64,000 bases of DNA from NCBI RefSeq assembly GCF_014695715.1, contig NZ_JACJOT010000001.1:186001-250000 (forward strand), read 5' to 3'. Made by a program: the position numbers and the translations under genes. Each line of letters starts with the position of its first letter. Position 1 is the first letter of the stretch. The notes beneath the pieces are model-generated. The model did no database searches. It worked only from the letters and a program-made list of their open reading frames with translations, and had not been told where the DNA came from. Source of the DNA: Microcoleus sp. FACHB-68 (GTDB taxonomy: Bacteria; Cyanobacteriota; Cyanobacteriia; Cyanobacteriales; Oscillatoriaceae). Shown here piece after piece: positions 4,603 to 46,347 of this stretch.

Positions 4603-5094
4603 ATGCAAAAGCGAATCCTCGGCATAGATCCAGGGTTAGCCAAATTAGGATTTGGGGCAATTTGCTGTGAACCGGCAGCCGGCGGAAACTTTGCCGGCAC
4701 CGTTTCTGCATTAGATTTTGGAGTCATTCAGACGCCTGCCGGCGAGGAAATTGGGCGGCGACTCTGTACCATTTATGAAGACTTGCACACCGTCATCAAA
4801 CAATTGCAACCCGATTTAATTGCGATAGAAAAGTTCTTTTTTTATCGCATGGCAAATACAATTCTAGTTGCACAGGCGCGGGGTGTGGTGATGTTAGTGA
4901 TCGCGCAGTGTGAAGTGCCTTTAGTTGAATATACGCCGGCACAGGTTAAGCAAGCACTCACCGGCTATGGCAATGCGGATAAACTGGAAGTGCAAGAAGC
5001 AGTTGCCAGGGAATTAAATTTAGAAACTTTACCGAAACCTGATGATGCCGCAGATGGGTTAGCCTTGGCTTTAACGGCATGGTTTCAGCGGTAA
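4603..5094 (+). CDS. ruvC: Holliday junction resolvase RuvC
   Basis: RuvC is the dimeric, Mg2+-dependent endonuclease that cuts four-way junctions after RuvAB branch migration. The 163-aa length is standard. The acidic residues are in place: D9 in [13 protein letters not shown]76 in LIAIEKFFF, and the C-terminal [11 protein letters not shown] carrying the last two. The [16 protein letters not shown] segment is the usual DNA-contact region. It lies downstream of chlI in the same direction, an unrelated function. Confidence 0.97.
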
Positions 5095-5242
5095 CAACAG
5101 AATTAAGTTATAAAAAATGAATCCATTTGGTGATCAGCTTGCCTAGGGAAGGATTTTGGGATAGTGAACATGGGGATTTCCGGAATTGAGTGAGTTGCTT
5201 TTGTAGACTGTAAATTAAGAGTTGAATTTGAGCAGGTAGGAT

Positions 5243-8200
5243 ATGAGCAGAAATTTAAAGCAATTACTGAATACTAAAGTTAAAGATTTATGGGACTCAA
5301 CTGAGTTGGTGAGCGGGAGTGCTGAGATTGGCAAAACTTTTTGGGATTGTGTGATTCCTTTGGTGTCAAGCGCTACTCTTTTAACTCAAGGTGTATCTGT
5401 CGGCCTTTTTGCGATTGGTTTTGCAGCGAAATCTATTAAGTTTTTTGGAGAGAAAACTAAAGCAAAACTGCTTTTGCCAGAATGGGTGCTTTTAGCAGCT
5501 TTATTTGCCTATATTGAGAGTTTTAAAACGCTAGGAAATACAGATTTCGTTAATGAAAAAATCAAAAATATTGTTTTAAATTTCTTATATTATCTAAAAA
5601 AATCAGGAGATTTTGAGCTGACAGAAGCACAAGCAAAAGATGTACTTCGCTGCTTTCATGAATCTGAGTTAGCTGAAGAATTTAATGGAATTTTATCCAC
5701 TTTAGTAAAACAAGCCGGCCTGAGTGTCAATGAAGCCGAAATTCTCACAAAACGGGTGGCTTGCGGAACGCATCGCTACTTAAATGAAGCGCTTGCCAGT
5801 GTAACTGATAAGGTGCCGGCCTTCGTGCAGCTTTACCGAGATGGATGGCGAAAAGAAAGTGAAAAATACCACGATTTGGATAAATATTTAGAGAAAAAAA
5901 TTGCCACAAAACCGCAAGAACGAATTAATTCTGATGAGCTAATTACATTTCAACAGATTTATGTTTCGCTGGAAGTGAAGCCAGGTAACAAAAAAGATGG
6001 GGAATACGCCGATAATTTAGAAGCGTGGGCAAAGCGTTTATTACTAGATCAAACTAAACAAGATCAAGTCCTGTTTATCCAAGCAGGGCCGGGACGTGGA
6101 AAAAGTGTATTTTGCCGGATGTTTGCAGATCAAGTTAGGCGAGAACTGCATCCAATCTGGACACCTATTTTAATTCGGTTGCGCGATATTATAACTTTTG
6201 AAAATAGCTTAGAAAATACTTTAAAAGCAGTTATTAAGGAGGATTTTGTTAAAAATGATGATGGATGGTTAACCAATAAAAATACCCGCTATTTATTTTT
6301 ACTTGATGGCTTTGATGAATTGGTGTTGGAAAGGAGAAACATTAAAACACTGCAAGATTTTCTGACTGAAGTGGGGCAATTTCAAAAAGATTATAGCGAT
6401 ATTCCTGGGGTAGGGCATCGGGTTTTAATCACCGGACGCTCTCTGGCATTACATAGCATTGAAACCTGGCTGCCAGATAATATTGAACGCGTGGAAATCT
6501 TGCCAATGGATGATGAACTTCAGCAGCAGTGGTTTGTTAAATGGGAAGCGATAGTCGGGGCAACAAAAAATCAAGCATTTCAAGCGTTATTAAAAGATAA
6601 AGATTGTCCTGGTCGGGTACAAGAATTAGCCAAAGAACCTCTGTTACTTTATCTGCTGGCAGCCATGCACCGGGATGAAAGAATTAAGGTCGAAGATTTT
6701 GCCGAAGTAATCAGTGCAAAGATTGTAATTTATGAAAAAGCCTTAGATTGGGTTTTAACCAAACAACGTAAACCATTGCTCAATCAAAAATTAACAGGGC
6801 AAGAAACCAAAGATTTACAAAGAATTCTCACGGAAGCCGGCTTATGTGTAGTGCAGTCGGGGGGTGAATGTGCGGCCATTTCGATGATAGAGGAACGACT
6901 GCAAAGTGATGCGAGTGCAAAAGCGTTGCTTGAAAAAGCCGAAAAGGATTTAGGAGAAAGCGCGCTAAAAAATGCCTTGGCTACATTTTATTTACAAACC
7001 GGATCGAAGGACGGTTCGGTTGAGTTTTGTCACAAGAGTTTTGGGGAATTCCTCTGTGCAAAACGTATCAAAGAAAGTTTGATTAACTGGACTAAACCAG
7101 GAAGTCAACGGCAGAAATTTGATATTCTTGACGAGCAGTTTGATTGGGAAATTTACGATTTACTGGGATATGGAGGATTAACCCCAGAAATTGTTGAATA
7201 TTTAACCGCATTGCTGAAAAAAGATGGTGAATTTCGCCAGGTGGAATTATTCCAGCGCTTAGAAGATTTTTATCTACGCTGGTGTGATGGAGAATTAATT
7301 GATGCACCTCCAAAAAAGTTATTCTTTATTAATTTTCCACAAGAAGGAAATTTACCGCAACATAAAATGCGGTTGCTGAGAACGCAAGTGGAAAATAGTA
7401 ACCTTGGACAGCGACAGGTGGATATCTATACAGGGCTGAATGTGATGATTTTGCTATTGGAATTAAACCGTTATGCTCAGTCACAGGATGAGTTAAAAGA
7501 TCAAGTTGTTTTTTATCCTTGTGGTCAACCAGATACAGAAAATTTTGATCAATTTAGACTGGGTCGCCTCATTGGTTACTGCCATTGTATCGATGCCGGT
7601 GCTTTTACCAGAGTAATTGGTTCATTTCTCAGCAATACCAACCTCAACGATGCCAACCTAAAAAGTGCCAACCTCGGCTCTGTCAGCCTCAGCAGTGCCA
7701 ACCTCAGCAATGCCAACCTCAGCCATGCCAACCTTGACGATGCCAACCTCGAAAATGCCAACCTCAGCAGTGCCAAGCTCATTGGTGCCTATCTTAACAG
7801 TGCTTACCTCATCGCTGCCAACCTCATCGGTGCCAACCTCAGCGGTGCTTATCTCAGCAGTGCTAACCTCAGCGGTGCTTATCTCAGCAGTGCTAACCTC
7901 ATCGATGCCAACCTCAGCGGTGCTTATCTCAGCGATACCAACCTCAGCGATGCCAACCTCAGCAGTGCTAACCTCATCAATGCCAGCTTCATCAATAATA
8001 CCAACCTCAGCAGTGCTAACCTCATCAATGCCAACCTCAGCAGTGCCAACCTCGAAAATGCCAACCTCAGCAATGCCCATCTCAACACTGCCAACCTCAG
8101 CCACGCTCATCTCAGCAGTGCCAACCTCAGAGGTGCCAACCTCAGCAATGCCCATCTCAACACTGCCAACCTCAGAGGTGCCAACCTCATGGGTGCCGAC

Positions 8201-8353
8201 CTCAGTGGTGCCAACCTCAGAGGCGTCAACCTCATGGGTGCCGACCTCGAAAACGTTCGCTGGGATGAAAATACAAACTGGGACAATGTCCAAGGCTTAG
8301 AAACAGCCCAAAACGTTCCAGAAGCTCTCAAACAACAACTGGGTCTGTCGTAA
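5243..8353 (+). CDS. NACHT-type STAND NTPase with pentapeptide-repeat tail
   Basis: The 1036-aa protein has three parts. Residues 1-230 form a mostly helical N-terminal region with a hydrophobic stretch near 35-65 (ATLLTQGVSVGLFAIGFAA), which I do not recognise. Residues 275-480 are an NTPase core of NACHT type: Walker A GPGRGKS (282-288), Walker B with doubled acids LFLLDGFDEL (351-360), and sensor-like VLITGRS (about 394-400). After a helical region, residues about 795-1005 are some 40 pentapeptide repeats of A(N/D)LSX form, predicted to fold as a right-handed beta-helix. Bacterial NACHT/STAND proteins include anti-phage sensors, with C-terminal repeats as the ligand-reading part. That role here is inference. 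An AGGTAGG ribosome site lies just before the ATG. The body is more AT-rich than ruvC and ndhD beside it. Confidence 0.85.
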   Translation: MSRNLKQLLNTKVKDLWDSTELVSGSAEIGKTFWDCVIPLVSSATLLTQGVSVGLFAIGFAAKSIKFFGEKTKAKLLLPEWVLLAALFAYIESFKTLGNTDFVNEKIKNIVLNFLYYLKKSGDFELTEAQAKDVLRCFHESELAEEFNGILSTLVKQAGLSVNEAEILTKRVACGTHRYLNEALASVTDKVPAFVQLYRDGWRKESEKYHDLDKYLEKKIATKPQERINSDELITFQQIYVSLEVKPGNKKDGEYADNLEAWAKRLLLDQTKQDQVLFIQAGPGRGKSVFCRMFADQVRRELHPIWTPILIRLRDIITFENSLENTLKAVIKEDFVKNDDGWLTNKNTRYLFLLDGFDELVLERRNIKTLQDFLTEVGQFQKDYSDIPGVGHRVLITGRSLALHSIETWLPDNIERVEILPMDDELQQQWFVKWEAIVGATKNQAFQALLKDKDCPGRVQELAKEPLLLYLLAAMHRDERIKVEDFAEVISAKIVIYEKALDWVLTKQRKPLLNQKLTGQETKDLQRILTEAGLCVVQSGGECAAISMIEERLQSDASAKALLEKAEKDLGESALKNALATFYLQTGSKDGSVEFCHKSFGEFLCAKRIKESLINWTKPGSQRQKFDILDEQFDWEIYDLLGYGGLTPEIVEYLTALLKKDGEFRQVELFQRLEDFYLRWCDGELIDAPPKKLFFINFPQEGNLPQHKMRLLRTQVENSNLGQRQVDIYTGLNVMILLLELNRYAQSQDELKDQVVFYPCGQPDTENFDQFRLGRLIGYCHCIDAGAFTRVIGSFLSNTNLNDANLKSANLGSVSLSSANLSNANLSHANLDDANLENANLSSAKLIGAYLNSAYLIAANLIGANLSGAYLSSANLSGAYLSSANLIDANLSGAYLSDTNLSDANLSSANLINASFINNTNLSSANLINANLSSANLENANLSNAHLNTANLSHAHLSSANLRGANLSNAHLNTANLRGANLMGADLSGANLRGVNLMGADLENVRWDENTNWDNVQGLETAQNVPEALKQQLGLS
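7626..8250 (+). repeat. 15-bp coding repeat array (pentapeptide repeats)
   Basis: Some 40 copies of a degenerate 15-bp unit of the form GCCAACCTCAGCAGT encode the beta-helix of the NACHT protein. Similarity between neighbouring units is very high, including near-identical blocks around 7840-7930, which suggests recent unit gain by slippage or unequal recombination. Because the period is a multiple of three, all other frames on both strands also stay open; those shadow frames are not genes. Confidence 0.9.
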
Positions 8354-8600
8354 ACCTACGAACCGGCTCTCATTCCTATTGAGTGCTGGATCGTAAAACT
8401 GTCTCAACACGCAAAGGATTGATGGTGGAAATAAACAACCGGCAACGTTGTAGCCATTCTGAAGAGAAACGAAGCATCTAGACTGCCGGCTATCTCTGTA
8501 GATCCACTTATACTTAACTAGGGAAAATATTTATAAATAAATGTTACAAAATTGCCTAAGATAGATGACATTGAGAAATTCTTAATTTTTTGCGACTCAC

Positions 8601-10316
8601 ATGATAGCGGATCAATTTCCCTGGCTGACTGCAATAGTCTTGCTGCCACTCGTTGCGGCACTGCTAATCCCCTTTCTCCCCGATAAAGACGGTAAGCGTG
8701 TGCGGTGGTATGCACTGGGCGTAGCTGTTGCAGATTTTGCCTTAATGTGCTTCGTCTTCTGGAATCATTACAATCCCAGCAGCGCTGCATTTCAACTCGT
8801 CGAGCAATATGCCTGGGTGCCTCAGTTAGGCATAAACTGGTCAGTTTCCGTCGATGGCGTTTCCGCCCCGCTAGTGCTTCTGGCAGGATTAGTCACCACA
8901 CTCTCGATTTTTGCAGCGTGGCAAGTCGATCTTAAACCCCGCCTGTTCTATTTCCTGATGCTGGTGCTGTATTCGGCACAGATCGGGGTATTCGTCGCGC
9001 AAGACGTAATGCTGCTATTCATTATGTGGGAAGTCGAACTGATTCCCGTGTATCTCCTCGTCTCGATTTGGGGAGGGCAAAAGCGTCAGTACGCTGCGAT
9101 GAAGTTCTTAATTTATACCGCTGCTGCTTCTATTTTTATTTTGGTTGCCGGCTTGGGAATGGCATTCACCGGCGATCATTTCACCTTCGATATGGTCGAA
9201 CTCGGCTTAAAGGATTACCCACTTGGTTTAGAATTGCTGCTTTATGCCGGCTTGCTGATTGCCTTTGGCGTCAAGCTAGCTGTTTTCCCCCTGCACACCT
9301 GGCTACCGGATGCACACGGCGAAGCCTCTTCTCCCGTCTCAATGGTATTAGCCGGCGTCCTGCTAAAAATGGGCGGATACGGTTTAATTCGCCTCAACTT
9401 AGGACTGCTTTCTGACGCACACGTTTACTTTGCGCCGGTTTTAGCAATTCTAGGCGTGATCAATATTGTCTACGGGGCGCTAAACTCGTTTGCCCAGACG
9501 AATATGAAGCGACGCCTCGCCTATTCGTCGGTTTCTCACATGGGATTTGTCCTGTTGGGAATTGCCTCCTTTACCGACTTGGGAATCAACGGCGCAATGC
9601 TGCAAATGATTTCCCACGGTTTGATTGCTTCCTTACTCTTCTTTTTAGCCGGCGTGACGTACGATCGCACCCACACAATGGCAATGAAAGAAATGGGCGG
9701 AATTGCTCAAGCAATGCCCACAGTTTTTGCCCTATTTACAATGGGTGTAATGGCATCCTTGGCATTACCGGGAATGAGCGGTTTTGTCGGTGAACTCTCC
9801 GTTTTTGTGGGAATCACAACCAGCGACATCTACAGCTCAACCTTCCGCACCGTAACGGTTTTACTCGCTGCCGTGGGAGTCATTCTGACGCCGGTTTATC
9901 TGCTTTCGATGCTGCGACAAGTCTTTTACAATTCCGGTGAAATACCCACCTGCGACATTGCACCAATCTGCGATCTCAGTGATGTAGATTTGAAGAATCA
10001 GGGAAATCAAGCGCCGGTTTGCTTTGGTACAAATTGTAGCTTGCCTATCGATTCAGAATTTACCGATGCCAGACCTCGTGAAGTATTTATTGCAGCTTGT
10101 TTTCTCGTGTTAATTATCGGCCTTGGCATCTACCCAAATATGGGAATGCAAATGTACGATGTCAAAACGGTTGCAGTGAATACCCAGGTTCGCCAATCTT
10201 ATATCCAAATCGCAGAAGCAAATCCCCAGATTTATGCGAAGAGATTTTTAATTCCGAAGGTTGCACAGTCGGACGTTGTGCCGGTTGTCAAAATCGCCGA
10301 GGGTACTCCCAGATAA
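8601..10316 (+). CDS. ndhD: NDH-1 subunit 4 (NdhD family)
   Basis: NdhD is a proton-pumping, antiporter-like membrane subunit of the cyanobacterial NDH-1 complex of respiration and cyclic electron flow. The 571-aa protein has about 14 hydrophobic segments. It carries the conserved membrane Glu in [16 protein letters not shown] and the Lys/His-bearing [24 protein letters not shown] segment typical of complex I subunit M. The region [14 protein letters not shown] and the later Lys-containing helices are also as expected. A soluble insert before the last membrane span carries four Cys (451, 457, 474, 479). NdhD1 and NdhD2 types cannot be separated with certainty here. The nearest neighbours are unrelated; no ndhF is adjacent. 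Confidence 0.95.
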
Positions 10317-10453: not shown

Positions 10454-10906
10454 TTAGGGCAAGGATGGGATAGAGAAGTCAGTAAACAACCGCACATCAT
10501 AAGGTGCAGTTGCTAAGGAATTCACTAGCTTTTGATCTAAAGTTAGCAGTGGTGCTTTAACTCGCTGCGAAAGAGCTACATAAGAGGCATCGTAGGCAGA
10601 AATTCCGTAATTTATGGCAATATTAACCGCTTCTTCCATTAACTCAGCCGTGGAAGTGACGCGCAAAGACATACCTTTGAGAGTGGCTAAGTCTGCCGGA
10701 ACATCCGCAGCAGCGTACAGTCTTGCACGAACATATTTCCAAAGGATGTTAGCTGTTTCGATATAAAACAAGTCTGGGATAAAGAATTCTGTTCCAGGAA
10801 TGGCGAGGTGGGCGAACAGTTGCTTAACTTTTGAGGATAAGGGATCGGGAACAAATTGCTTAATTCCCACACTCGCATCAACGACGCATCGCAAAGGAGT
10901 TGTCAT
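10454..10906 (-). CDS. PIN-domain toxin, VapC-like
   Basis: The 150-aa protein has the PIN-domain acidic set: VVDASVGIKQF near the N-terminus (first Asp), PDLFYIETANILW (Glu), and SAYDASYVALSQ followed by LLTLDQKLVNS (C-terminal acids). PIN toxins of type II systems are Mg2+-dependent ribonucleases that stop growth by cutting tRNA or rRNA. Its start overlaps the upstream antitoxin gene by 4 bp (ATGA), the standard coupled arrangement. The RNA target cannot be read from the sequence. Confidence 0.9.
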   Translation of the reverse strand: MTTPLRCVVDASVGIKQFVPDPLSSKVKQLFAHLAIPGTEFFIPDLFYIETANILWKYVRARLYAAADVPADLATLKGMSLRVTSTAELMEEAVNIAINYGISAYDASYVALSQRVKAPLLTLDQKLVNSLATAPYDVRLFTDFSIPSLP

Positions 10907-11211
10907 CTATCCCGATCCTCTCTAAGTAAAGCCGTGCTATCTGGCCATTCAACATTAGCATTGTCAACACGACGCTGTTCTAGCCGCTGCTCAATTTCAG
11001 CGAGTAGTTGTGGGGTGGCTTTACAGCGTTCTTCCCAAGTGGGATCTGTTTCAGGGGAAACAAGGAATTTGAGGGGAGGTTGGGGCTTTTGTAGAGCTTG
11101 TTTTAATAAGTTGATGACTTGTTCGTTAATAGGTTGATGGTTTTGGTTGGCAAGTTTCTGAATTTGCTCCAATAAGTCATCGGGTAGGTTATCGATGGTG
11201 AGGATTGCCAT
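10903..11211 (-). CDS. Antitoxin of the VapBC-type pair, ribbon-helix-helix
   Basis: The 102-aa protein begins MAILTIDNLPDDLLEQIQKLA, the pattern of an Arc/FitA-type ribbon-helix-helix DNA-binding N-terminus (strand, then helix with regular Leu/Ile). It ends with a polar, charged tail (residues about 55-102) of the kind that wraps the toxin. It is the first gene of the pair and overlaps the toxin start by 4 bp. Antitoxins of this kind usually repress their own promoter together with the toxin, so regulation is expected in the spacer at 11212-11282. Confidence 0.85.
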   Translation of the reverse strand: MAILTIDNLPDDLLEQIQKLANQNHQPINEQVINLLKQALQKPQPPLKFLVSPETDPTWEERCKATPQLLAEIEQRLEQRRVDNANVEWPDSTALLREDRDR

Positions 11212-11282: not shown

Positions 11283-11861
11283 CTATTCAAAAACTGCTTG
11301 TAAATCTAAAATAAATGCCGGCAGAACATCTTCACCCGATAACGTAGCGGGAGATTCTAAAACCTCAACTTCTTGATTCGGGCGATAAATTTCTACTTGC
11401 CGAATTTTAGGATTAATCAACCACCCCAAACGCAGCCCATTACTAATATACTCCTGCATTTTTTTCCGGGTTTCTTCCACATCATCTGTTTCCGAAACCA
11501 ATTCGATTGCAAAGTCGGGACACAAGGGTAGGAATTTCTTTCTTTCCTCTTGCGTCAAAGCTTCCCATCGCTTTATACTCACCCAAGAAGCATCAGGAGA
11601 ACGAGTGCCACCTTTCGGCAACCGAAACCCTGTAGAAGAATCAAAGGCTTTTCCCAGACGTGTTTGCCGGTTCCAAAGCCAAAGCTGTCCTTCTATATCC
11701 AGATTCCGGTTTCCCGTTTCTCCTCCCGTCGGCGGCATGATAATTAATTCTCCTTTAGCGGTGAGTTCTAGTTGCAAATCTTGGTTAGCCGCAGCAAGTT
11801 GTTCAAACTGCTCGTCAGTCAATTTAAGAACCGGCGGTAATTGTAGAGTCAAATTACTCAT
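11283..11861 (-). CDS. Uma2-family (DUF820) putative endonuclease, copy 1
   Basis: Uma2 proteins are restriction-endonuclease-like (PD-(D/E)xK fold) and greatly expanded in cyanobacteria; their role is unsettled. The 192-aa protein has the usual blocks: LTDEQFEQLAAANQDLQLEL, the GELIIMPPTGGETGNRN strand-turn, SPDASWVSIKRW, and the core PDFAIELVSETDD with the acidic and Glu residues, then GLRLGWLINPKIRQVEIYRP. It is a close paralogue of the next gene upstream. Their products differ mainly in one short block (LDIEGQLWLWNRQ here, FEIYIDLGVWNRQ there). Confidence 0.9.
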   Translation of the reverse strand: MSNLTLQLPPVLKLTDEQFEQLAAANQDLQLELTAKGELIIMPPTGGETGNRNLDIEGQLWLWNRQTRLGKAFDSSTGFRLPKGGTRSPDASWVSIKRWEALTQEERKKFLPLCPDFAIELVSETDDVEETRKKMQEYISNGLRLGWLINPKIRQVEIYRPNQEVEVLESPATLSGEDVLPAFILDLQAVFE

Positions 11862-11971
11862 GATTCAGTCCGTCCTATTAAAATACTTATTGGGTCAAAA
11901 GCGCATAGAATTTAGTCTGATTTGTCGGCATCTGAGCATCTGGCTGTAGCACATATTGCTCAATCATTCAT

Positions 11972-12550
11972 TTATTCAAAAATTGCTTGTAAATCTAAAA
12001 TAAATGCCGGCAAAACATCTTCGCCCGATAACGTAGCGGGAGAATCTAAAATCTTAACTTCTCGATTCGGGCGATAAATTTCTACTTGCCGAATTTTAGG
12101 ATTAATTAACCACCCCAAACGTAAACCATTACTAATATACTCCTGCATTTTTTTCCGGGTTTCTTCCACATCATCCGTTTCCGAAACCAATTCGATTGCA
12201 AAGTCGGGACACAACGGTAGGAATTTTTTTCGTTCCTCTTGCGTCAAAGCTTCCCATCGCTTTATACTCACCCAAGAAGCATCAGGAGAACGAGTGCCAC
12301 CTTTCGGCAACCGAAACCCTGTAGAAGAATCAAAGGCTTTTCCCAGACGTGTTTGCCGGTTCCAAACGCCTAAATCAATGTAAATTTCAAAATTCCGGTT
12401 TCCCGTTTCTCCTCCCGTCGGCGGCATAATCATTAATTCTCCTTTAGCTGTGAGTTCTAGCTGCAAGTCTTGGTTAGCCGCAGCAAGTTGTTCAAATTGT
12501 TCGTCAGTCAGTTTAAGAACCGGCGGTAATTGTAGAGTTAAAGCACTCAT
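11972..12550 (-). CDS. Uma2-family (DUF820) putative endonuclease, copy 2
   Basis: This 192-aa protein is the tandem paralogue of the gene at 11283-11861, same length and near-identical apart from the block after GETGNRN and a few substitutions near the C-terminus (NREVKILDSPA against NQEVEVLESPA). The core PDFAIELVSETDD and the following GLRLGWLINPK are intact. The upstream leaders are also alike (TCATGATT...CTGTCCTATTAAAATA in both), so the duplication included the start region. Each copy could be transcribed on its own. Confidence 0.9.
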   Translation of the reverse strand: MSALTLQLPPVLKLTDEQFEQLAAANQDLQLELTAKGELMIMPPTGGETGNRNFEIYIDLGVWNRQTRLGKAFDSSTGFRLPKGGTRSPDASWVSIKRWEALTQEERKKFLPLCPDFAIELVSETDDVEETRKKMQEYISNGLRLGWLINPKIRQVEIYRPNREVKILDSPATLSGEDVLPAFILDLQAIFE

Positions 12551-23996: not shown

Positions 23997-24830
23997 TTAG
24001 CGTAGTTGGTTAGCCGGCGCTGTTGGGTTTGCGTTAGCCGGCGCTGTGGGATTCGCGTTAGCCGGCGCTGTGGGATTTGAGTTAGCCGGCGCTGTGGGAT
24101 TCGCGTTAGCCGGCGCTGTGGGATTTGAGTTAGCCGGCGCTGTGGGATTTGAGTTAGCCGGCGCTGTGGGATTCGCGTTAGCCGGCGCAGTTGGGTTCGC
24201 GTTTGCCGGTGCTGTAGGATTCGCGTTAGCTGGCGCTGTGGGATTTGAGTTTGCTGGCGCTGTGGGATTCGCGTTAGCCGGCGCTGTGGGATTTGAATTA
24301 GCCGGCGCTGCTGTGGGATTTGAGTTAGTCGGCGCTGCTGTGGGATTTGCGTTTGCCGGCGCTGTTGGATTTGAATTGGCCGGTGTTTGAGCGCGTTGCT
24401 GCTGGTAGAATTGCAGAACTCTTTGGGTGTATGGGGAAATTGTGGCGCTGCTGTACTGAGCAGGGTCGCCGGTCATCCACCACGAAGCGGCGCGAAGCAC
24501 TGCCGTTGACTCATTCTGGCCGCCGGCTTGGTACTCTTCTGTTAATACATCGCGCATGACACAGACCAAAATGCCGCGCGCTGTAACTGGACTCGTTTCA
24601 AACTGTGTCGGTGTGAGTTCCCTGCCGATGCAAAGTCTCGACCACCGGGGGATATTCTCTGGTTTGATTTGCCAGTCGCTGTAAAGTCCATCATTTGCGG
24701 TGCCGGTATCGGGCGCTGCCTGCCGCAAGGCTTCTACGAGTGCCCCAACTTGGGCATCTGAGACTTGGGCTTGTGCCGGCATTGCCCACAATCCCAAGCT
24801 TACAATCAGTCCGCCGAGCAGTAATCGCAT
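23997..24830 (-). CDS. Exported protein with Pro/Ala/Asn octapeptide tail
   Basis: I chose the ATG at 24830, 14 codons inside the longest frame, because it follows AGAGGAAACACC and begins a classic signal peptide (MRLLLGGLIVSLGLWAMPAQA). The mature domain of about 130 residues contains three Cys (LCIGRELTPT, LVCVMRDVL) and ends at VLQFYQQQRAQTP. It is unrecognised. The remaining 110-120 residues are some 15 copies of the octapeptide NPTAPAN(A/S). Such a Pro-rich unstructured tail could span or bind the cell wall, or merely reflect repeat expansion. The gene converges with the SH3-type gene. Confidence 0.75.
   Translation of the reverse strand: MRLLLGGLIVSLGLWAMPAQAQVSDAQVGALVEALRQAAPDTGTANDGLYSDWQIKPENIPRWSRLCIGRELTPTQFETSPVTARGILVCVMRDVLTEEYQAGGQNESTAVLRAASWWMTGDPAQYSSATISPYTQRVLQFYQQQRAQTPANSNPTAPANANPTAAPTNSNPTAAPANSNPTAPANANPTAPANSNPTAPANANPTAPANANPTAPANANPTAPANSNPTAPANSNPTAPANANPTAPANSNPTAPANANPTAPANANPTAPANQLR
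24003..24390. repeat. 24-bp minisatellite, about 15 units
   Basis: The unit is 24 bp, GCCGGCGCTGTGGGATTC followed by GCGTTA or GAGTTA (plus-strand view). Neighbouring copies are near-identical, with two longer units where an Ala codon was added. It codes the octapeptide tail of the exported protein on the minus strand and leaves an equally long spurious frame on the plus strand. Copy number is likely to vary between strains. Confidence 0.9.
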
Positions 24831-45294: not shown

Positions 45295-46347
45295 ATGAAT
45301 ACTAATGAACTTGTGAGTGCTCATGAACTTTTAAGTCGCCACGCACAAGGAGAACGAGACTTTCGAGGAGCGCAGTTGCGGCGAGCCAACTTCAGTGCGG
45401 TTAATTTGAATCGAACCAATCTCAGGGGAGCCAATCTCAAAACCGCTAACTTAACAATGGCTACACTCGTCGGCACCAACTTGAGCGAGGCTGATCTGAG
45501 TGGGGCAATTCTGTCTCAAGCCACAATGATTGAAACCAATCTGTGCCGGTCTAATCTGAGTGGGGCCATTTTGATCCAAGCTGACTTGAGCGGGTCTAGC
45601 CTGAGTGGGGCAATCATGCACAAAACAGACCTGAGTCACAGCATTCTCACGGGTGCAAGCTTGGTAGGTGCAGATTTAACAGGAGCCAACCTAACCGAGA
45701 GTGTTTGGATCGCAGCCGCTTTAAGCCGAGCGATTTTAATTGGGGTTAATGGCAGTCGAGCAAACCTAAATCGGGCTGTGTTCAGTGAGGCAAACTTGAG
45801 TGAGGCAAACTTGAGTGGAGCGAGTATGATTCGCGCTTACTTGAGTCGCGCTAATTTGAAGGGTGCCAATCTCACTGAGGTTGATTTAACTGAGGCGGAT
45901 CTGCGGCAGGCTGACTTGAGTGGGGCTAACCTGAGTGGAGCCAATCTCAGTGGGGCTGATCTGAGTATGGCCAATCTTAATGGAGCTAATCTCAGGGGTG
46001 CAGACTTGCGCGGTTGCAATTTGAGTGGGTCAAATCTGAGCGGACTGTTGCTGAGTGGGGCAAACCTTAGCGGTGCGGAAATGACGCGAGCCGATTTGCG
46101 CTTAGCCAATCTATCGGGTGCGAATTTATCGGGCGCTAACCTGCTGGAGGCGGACTTGCGGGATGCTAACTTGAGTCGGGCAAATCTCTGTGGAGCCGGT
46201 TTGCTGCTCACCTATCTCAGCGGTGCTAACTTAACTCAGGCGAATCTGACAGGGACTAATTTGATTGGGGCGACCCTAAGTGGCGCTTGCTTGCATGAGG
46301 CCATTCTTGGGGGAGCGATCTTGCCGAATGGGGCCACTCATAGTTAG
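45295..46347 (+). CDS. Cytoplasmic pentapeptide-repeat protein
   Basis: The 350-aa protein has a short N-terminus (MNTNELVSAHELLSRHAQGE) and then about 60 uninterrupted pentapeptides of (A/S)NLSG type to near residue 340, enough for a beta-helix of about 15 coils. There is no signal peptide or membrane span. The N-terminal HELLxRHAQGERDFRG lead-in is typical of the cyanobacterial group in which the repeats begin with the first helix cap. Function unknown; some pentapeptide proteins mimic DNA and inhibit gyrase, but nothing here demonstrates that. A terminator follows. Confidence 0.88.
   Translation: MNTNELVSAHELLSRHAQGERDFRGAQLRRANFSAVNLNRTNLRGANLKTANLTMATLVGTNLSEADLSGAILSQATMIETNLCRSNLSGAILIQADLSGSSLSGAIMHKTDLSHSILTGASLVGADLTGANLTESVWIAAALSRAILIGVNGSRANLNRAVFSEANLSEANLSGASMIRAYLSRANLKGANLTEVDLTEADLRQADLSGANLSGANLSGADLSMANLNGANLRGADLRGCNLSGSNLSGLLLSGANLSGAEMTRADLRLANLSGANLSGANLLEADLRDANLSRANLCGAGLLLTYLSGANLTQANLTGTNLIGATLSGACLHEAILGGAILPNGATHS

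What the first reader, a model, noticed from the sequence alone, without database searches (positions are those of the whole stretch)
5243..8353. NACHT NTPase fused to a long, freshly expanded pentapeptide beta-helix
The sequence shows Walker A, Walker B with a doubled acidic end, and a TGR sensor in one chain with about 40 pentapeptide repeats and an unrecognised N-terminal domain of about 230 residues. Bacterial NACHT/STAND proteins are known anti-phage sensors whose C-terminal repeats read the trigger. A beta-helix in that place is an unusual sensor, and several repeat units are near-identical, as if the reader changes quickly by unit gain. The unknown N-terminus would be the effector.
Basis: partly seen in the sequence, partly recalled or inferred. 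Interest (0 to 1): 0.62.

Follow-up and report, generated by a model that had tools for sequence, protein, structure and literature searches.

The report
Cyanobacterial NACHT protein with beta-helix tail
A filamentous cyanobacterium (Microcoleus-type) carries, between two housekeeping genes, a fast-changing NACHT switch protein of the kind related to animal immune receptors, with a pentapeptide beta-helix as its probable reading arm; it belongs to a large, partly catalogued cyanobacterial family, but its slot in the chromosome holds an unrelated suspected conflict operon in a sister species, and cut-down copies without the switch exist.

Summary
In detail: window 5243-8353 (+) is one frame of 1036 aa with Walker A (K287), Walker B (LLDGFDE), ITGR, a winged-helix HKSF motif and about 42 pentapeptides. 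The N-terminus is not unrecognised: residues 57-225 are Pfam NNH3 (4.4e-30), present in all 64 relatives scanned. And the array is not generally fresh; only a few blocks (42-nt and 37-nt exact copies) are recent. The truly unnamed part is residues 601-790, a confident all-helical module between NACHT and repeats. The family is widespread in cyanobacteria (84 of 245 genomes of the order carry the module). Between congeners, flanking proteins are 93-99.5% identical while this one is 65%, worst at its tip and in the repeats; in a third congener the same ruvC-ndhD slot holds a CHAT-TPR operon. Module-plus-repeat proteins lacking NACHT arose at least twice. Best reading: a STAND/NACHT conflict sensor with a repeat reader and a non-enzymatic helical effector. 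Anti-phage function is inferred, not shown: PADLOC has no model for it, and chromosomal neighbours showed no defence enrichment.

The parts
5243..8353 (+). NNH3-NACHT-helical module-pentapeptide protein, 1036 aa, single gene between ruvC and ndhD
5243..5422 (+). N-terminal tip, residues 1-60; least conserved part between congeners (33% aa, dN 0.59); AF2 helix 5-18, residues 19-55 low confidence
5411..5917 (+). NNH3 domain (PF22735), residues 57-225, all-helical, no catalytic-looking invariant residues
6044..6562 (+). NACHT NTPase core, residues 268-440
6083..6106 (+). Walker A AGPGRGKS, residues 281-288 (K287)
6290..6322 (+). Walker B region with D355, D358, E359
6431..6439 (+). TGR, sensor-1-type motif, residues 397-399
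7031..7042 (+). HKSF motif of the winged-helix end of the STAND module, residues 597-600, invariant in 17 homologues
7043..7612 (+). unnamed all-helical module, residues 601-790; no Pfam family; AF2 pLDDT 90; occurs also in proteins without NACHT
7631..8260 (+). pentapeptide array, residues 797-1006, 42 units
8059..8175 (+). recent duplication: exact 42-nt copies at 8059 and 8134
7835..7901 (+). recent tandem duplication: exact 37-nt copies at 7835 and 7865 (period 30)
8261..8350 (+). C-terminal cap (WDENTNW...VPEALKQQLGL), conserved in many homologues
5117..8486 (.). variable slot: this interval is absent from congener G002, which has a CHAT-TPR operon here
4603..5094 (+). ruvC, left border of the slot (99% identical in three congeners)
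8601..10316 (+). ndhD, right border of the slot (97-99% identical)

Best explanation
It is a STAND (NACHT) switch protein used in biological conflict: ADP-bound and closed at rest; the pentapeptide beta-helix, presented on the helical 601-790 module, binds a trigger; nucleotide exchange opens the protein and it oligomerises; the clustered N-terminal NNH3 helices then act as a non-enzymatic effector, most likely by disturbing the membrane or recruiting a partner, leading to dormancy or death of the compromised cell. Shown here: the domains, the invariant nucleotide-binding motifs, the family, the fast change at both ends, and the slot exchange. Inferred from known STAND/NLR biology: the closed/open cycle, oligomerisation, sensing by the repeats, cell-suicide outcome, phage as the trigger.
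For: Intact Walker A/B, TGR and winged-helix motifs invariant in homologues. NNH3 in all 64 homologues scanned; no invariant acid/His/Cys/Lys set that would suggest an enzyme; all-helical model; hydrophobic stretches, median best 19-residue Kyte-Doolittle 1.78. Gene 65% aa identical between congeners (dN 0.218, dS 0.417) where neighbours are 93-99.5% (dN 0.002-0.033, dS 0.16-0.28); least conserved in residues 1-60 and the repeats, most in the 601-790 module. Same slot holds a CHAT-TPR operon in G002. Repeat number about 5 to 62. Patchy in the order, 41 of 100 relatives; four plasmid copies, one right behind a DUF1156 methyltransferase and a helicase resembling Hma/DISARM proteins, one near two CHAT genes. 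NACHT proteins of other clades do defend against phage (PMC12169576).
Against: No PADLOC model matches it. PADLOC matches among 120 chromosomal neighbour proteins are not visibly commoner than among 108 control proteins. No conserved partner gene. No relative in viral contigs, which is neutral. No solved structure resembles NNH3 or the 601-790 module. Array alignments are not positionally secure.
Confidence: 0.6

Rival explanations
1. A STAND regulator of development or programmed cell death of the filament (nutrient or stress signal rather than phage), with the pentapeptide helix as a docking scaffold.
For: NACHT and CHAT/caspase-like proteins are rich in multicellular cyanobacteria and discussed as cell-death regulators (PMC3501461, PMC7159879); cut-down proteins are inherited at a fixed locus in three congeners.
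Against: Patchy distribution, slot exchange with an unrelated operon, plasmid carriage and strong divergence between congeners fit conflict better than a core developmental role.
Confidence: 0.2
2. The pentapeptide helix does not sense a trigger but is the output, for example by binding DNA gyrase or DNA as Qnr/MfpA-type proteins do.
For: Pentapeptide beta-helices of Qnr/MfpA type mimic DNA (general knowledge); the array matches these models through its repeats.
Against: Matches are far below the Qnr/MfpA cut-offs; the array is Asn/Ser-rich with few acids (8 D, 3 E, 4 R, 2 K, 5 H), unlike a strongly acidic DNA mimic; copy number ranges from about 5 to 62.
Confidence: 0.1
3. Allele exchange only: the slot is a neutral hot spot for gene replacement and the repeats expand and contract by slippage without a role in recognition.
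For: dS in the gene is about twice that of the flanks; 15-nt repeats with exact tandem blocks are expected to slip.
Against: Invariant NTPase motifs and frames kept open across the order; the 601-790 module is well conserved (dN/dS about 0.3) while the ends change.
Confidence: 0.1

Closest known systems
Pfam NNH3 (PF22735) NACHT proteins of cyanobacteria
   Same: NNH3 followed by NACHT; this gene is a member
   Different: nothing in kind; number and sequence of the repeats are its own
Bacterial NACHT (bNACHT) anti-phage proteins, e.g. bNACHT25 (clade 6) and bNACHT02/12 (clade 14), PMC12169576
   Same: central NACHT module; N-terminal effector position; C-terminal part thought to sense infection
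   Different: bNACHT25 has a PD-(D/E)XK nuclease and an NCH1 C-terminus, clade 14 has SNaCT; here NNH3, an unnamed helical module and a beta-helix; no defence test known to me
Cyanobacterial metacaspase-NACHT-pentapeptide-WD40 proteins (PMC3501461)
   Same: NACHT next to pentapeptide repeats in cyanobacteria
   Different: those have a caspase-like domain and WD40 repeats, absent here
CHAT-TPR operon in the same slot of congener G002 (L053)
   Same: same chromosomal site; suspected conflict system
   Different: unrelated proteins: CHAT domain with TPR, a 177-aa and a 500-aa protein
Stand-alone pentapeptide proteins HetL, Alr5209
   Same: pentapeptide beta-helix (NCBIfam Alr5209 131.9 bits over 125; HetL 126.6 under 260)
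   Different: match is through repeats only; no STAND module in those families

Membership tests
STAND/NACHT NTPase | Walker A, Walker B with acidic end, sensor-type R, winged-helix motif | tested here: met
   all invariant in 17 homologues; Pfam NACHT E 1.1e-5 but 0.9 bit under its cut-off
NNH3 (PF22735) | score above curated cut-off, position before NACHT | tested here: met
   102-106 bits against 27
Pentapeptide repeat protein | tandem A(D/N)LXX units with central L, long chain of units | tested here: met
   1.5e-51; 42 units
Known anti-phage system (PADLOC) | match to a curated defence model | tested here: not met
   no family at E up to 1
Anti-phage NACHT (function) | protection against phage dependent on the NTPase | not testable with these tools
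   needs phage assays
Defence-island gene | neighbours enriched in defence genes | tested here: inconclusive
   no visible excess in chromosomal neighbours; two plasmid copies lie near methyltransferase/helicase or CHAT genes
Qnr/MfpA-type DNA mimic | match above family cut-off | tested here: not met
   Qnr 67 bits against 240, MfpA 52 against 360
DGR-diversified STAND sensor | variable repeat with reverse transcriptase and template repeat nearby | not tested
   variation here is in pentapeptide units; no search for a template repeat was run

The most novel reading that the evidence does not exclude
Cyanobacteria repeatedly make 'reader-only' proteins by dropping the NNH3 and NACHT parts and keeping the helical module plus pentapeptide helix; these would act as decoys, inhibitors or soluble ligand-presenting partners of NACHT receptors, a regulatory layer like decoy NLRs.
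Probability: 0.22. Interest if true: 0.62.

Novelty: new member of a known kind. Interest (0 to 1): 0.42.

Why it matters
It gives a clear test bed for how a beta-helix could serve as the recognition arm of a bacterial NLR-like protein: one genus offers a natural series at one chromosomal slot (two divergent alleles and a replacement by a CHAT operon), the family spans about 5 to 62 repeats, and natural reader-only versions without the switch exist. It also points to an unnamed conserved domain (residues 601-790) that couples a STAND switch to pentapeptide repeats.

Tried and rejected
Conserved partner gene: the commonest neighbour cluster (12 of 57 loci) turned out to be held together by WD40 repeats, with different N-termini, and its relatives are everywhere in these genomes. 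Defence island: no visible excess of PADLOC matches near chromosomal copies. Phage origin: no relatives in viral contigs. Fold relatives: Foldseek found none at E 0.001 for NNH3 or the 601-790 module; VIA-align best Z 5.7 (HAD-type phosphatase, 87 residues, rmsd 3.7) and 7.8 (CYRI-B, 153 residues, rmsd 4.1), both within the range common for helical folds. No PDB relative by sequence for residues 1-769. Decoy of a full-length protein in the same genome as a general rule: G002, G080 and G096 have a reader-only protein without a close full-length copy. Retained N-terminal tip in the Nostocaceae reader-only proteins: only weak scores (best 0.0018), so not claimed. Strain-level variation could not be measured: one genome per species is held.

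Full report
What is there. Window 5243-8353 (+) is a single 1036-aa frame. The organism is a filamentous cyanobacterium: neighbours are a cobH-type gene, dapB, chlI, ruvC, then this gene, then ndhD (cobH-type and dapB by eye), and the nearest held relative with the same locus is Microcoleus vaginatus WJT46-NPBG5 (its contig has the length of G001:C31). Residues 57-225 match Pfam NNH3 (PF22735, 4.4e-30), residues 268-440 are the NACHT NTPase (Pfam 1.1e-5, 0.9 bit under cut-off), residues 797-1006 are about 42 pentapeptides, and a short conserved cap ends the protein. K287, D355, D358, E359 and R399 are invariant in 17 homologues.

The N-terminus is a catalogued domain: all 64 homologues scanned carry NNH3. 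The family is large: 246 relatives confirmed among the candidates of one scan of the species-genome collection, the best 80 all from cyanobacteria; NNH3 in 28 of 194 cyanobacterial genomes and none of 14 control genomes. So the architecture is common in this phylum; plasmid copies are annotated simply as 'pentapeptide repeat protein'. NACHT beside pentapeptides has been reported in cyanobacterial metacaspases (PMC3501461).

Is the array freshly expanded? In part. There are 8 exact 30-nt in-frame pairs; synonymous-codon shuffles give 0.1 on average and unit-order shuffles 0.25, with 0 of 500 reaching 8 in either. The copies are a 42-nt block at 8059 and 8134 and a 37-nt block at 7835 and 7865. 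Elsewhere the units differ: mean pairwise unit identity 0.68, against 0.74-0.85 in several homologues. Repeat chains in complete homologues run from about 5 units (L038) to 62 (L091); chain counts break at register slips, so they are lower bounds.

The unnamed part. Residues 601-790 have no credible Pfam family in any of 69 homologues but are, with the short cap, the best conserved stretch between congeners (79%) and give a confident all-helical model (pLDDT 90, pTM 0.89). No solved structure is a convincing relative. The module occurs in 84 of 245 genomes of the order.

The slot. In G001 the ruvC and ndhD proteins are 99% and 97% identical to the window's, and the gene between them is the homologue, only 65% identical (dN 0.218, dS 0.417; flanking genes dN 0.002-0.033, dS 0.16-0.28). 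By domain: residues 1-60 33%, NNH3 61%, NACHT 70%, 441-600 69%, 601-790 79%, repeats 56%, cap 79%. The doubled dS argues that allele exchange contributed, beside faster protein change. In G002 the flanks align up to window 5116 and again from 8487; between them lies an opposite-facing set of a 906-aa CHAT-TPR protein (PF12770, 2.8e-45), a 177-aa and a 500-aa protein. The slot therefore trades one suspected conflict system for another. This is one genus and three genomes.

Reader-only proteins. In the window's own genome, contig 16, a protein of about 366-415 aa consists of the 601-790 module, pentapeptides and cap only. It lies between the same two genes in all three congeners, and in G001 it is duplicated in tandem. 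Others occur in relatives of the same order (G080, G081, G113, G168, G220, G241) with other N-termini. A tree of the module places the ten sampled in three places, and well-supported branches force at least two origins; the place of the long-branched G080 row is unsure. They evolve fast too (75-85% between congeners for the orthologous copies).

Context. Chromosomal neighbours show no visible excess of PADLOC matches over control proteins (the two sets are not matched for genome and one protein can hit many models, so this is a rough test) and no constant partner. Four plasmids carry homologues; on Nostoc sp. ATCC 53789 pNsp_c the gene follows a DUF1156 methyltransferase and a helicase that match Hma, DISARM and related models, and on a Nostoc sp. 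UHCC 0302 plasmid two CHAT genes lie upstream.

Mechanism. Shown: parts, invariant motifs, family, variability, slot exchange. Inferred: a closed ADP form, opening upon a trigger read by the beta-helix, oligomerisation, and a non-enzymatic NNH3 output (no invariant catalytic-looking set; hydrophobic stretches). Phage as trigger is an inference from NACHT proteins of other clades (PMC12169576).

Verdict. A real, intact, conflict-type NACHT receptor, member of a known but, as far as I could find, functionally untested cyanobacterial family. The slot exchange, the unnamed coupling module and the recurrent reader-only proteins are the parts worth a specialist's time.

Noticed in passing
own genome G000:C16:173213-174308 (L058 7061-8308): NACHT-less protein of 601-790-type module plus pentapeptides and cap, at a fixed locus in three congeners; tandem duplicate in G001 (L059 7522-10440), the second copy with two arrays and two caps in one frame
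   Followed up: yes
L053 4843-9441 (G002, ruvC-ndhD slot): CHAT-TPR 906-aa protein with a 177-aa overlapping frame and a 500-aa protein of unknown kind with a hydrophobic C-terminal part
   Followed up: partly
window 11283-12550: two near-identical 192-aa proteins in tandem (Uma2-like by eye, not scanned), probably a recent duplication; congeners G001 and G002 appear to have one at this place
   Followed up: no
window 10454-11211: 150-aa PIN-like protein and 102-aa partner on the minus strand, looks like a toxin-antitoxin pair (by eye)
   Followed up: no
window 24009-24373: 15 copies of a 24-bp repeat inside a minus-strand frame
   Followed up: no
window 45295-46344: another pentapeptide protein; the genome has dozens of pentapeptide loci (73 matching places)
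   Followed up: no
L216 4180-7353 (G180): a homologue split into a 390-aa NNH3 part and a 658-aa NACHT part, pseudogene or two-piece form
   Followed up: no
L101 and L102 (Okeania): homologues with an extra N-terminal stretch of roughly 100 aa in front of NNH3
   Followed up: no
L076, L098, L111, L116, L118, L138, L148: several genomes have two family members close together, some in tandem
   Followed up: partly
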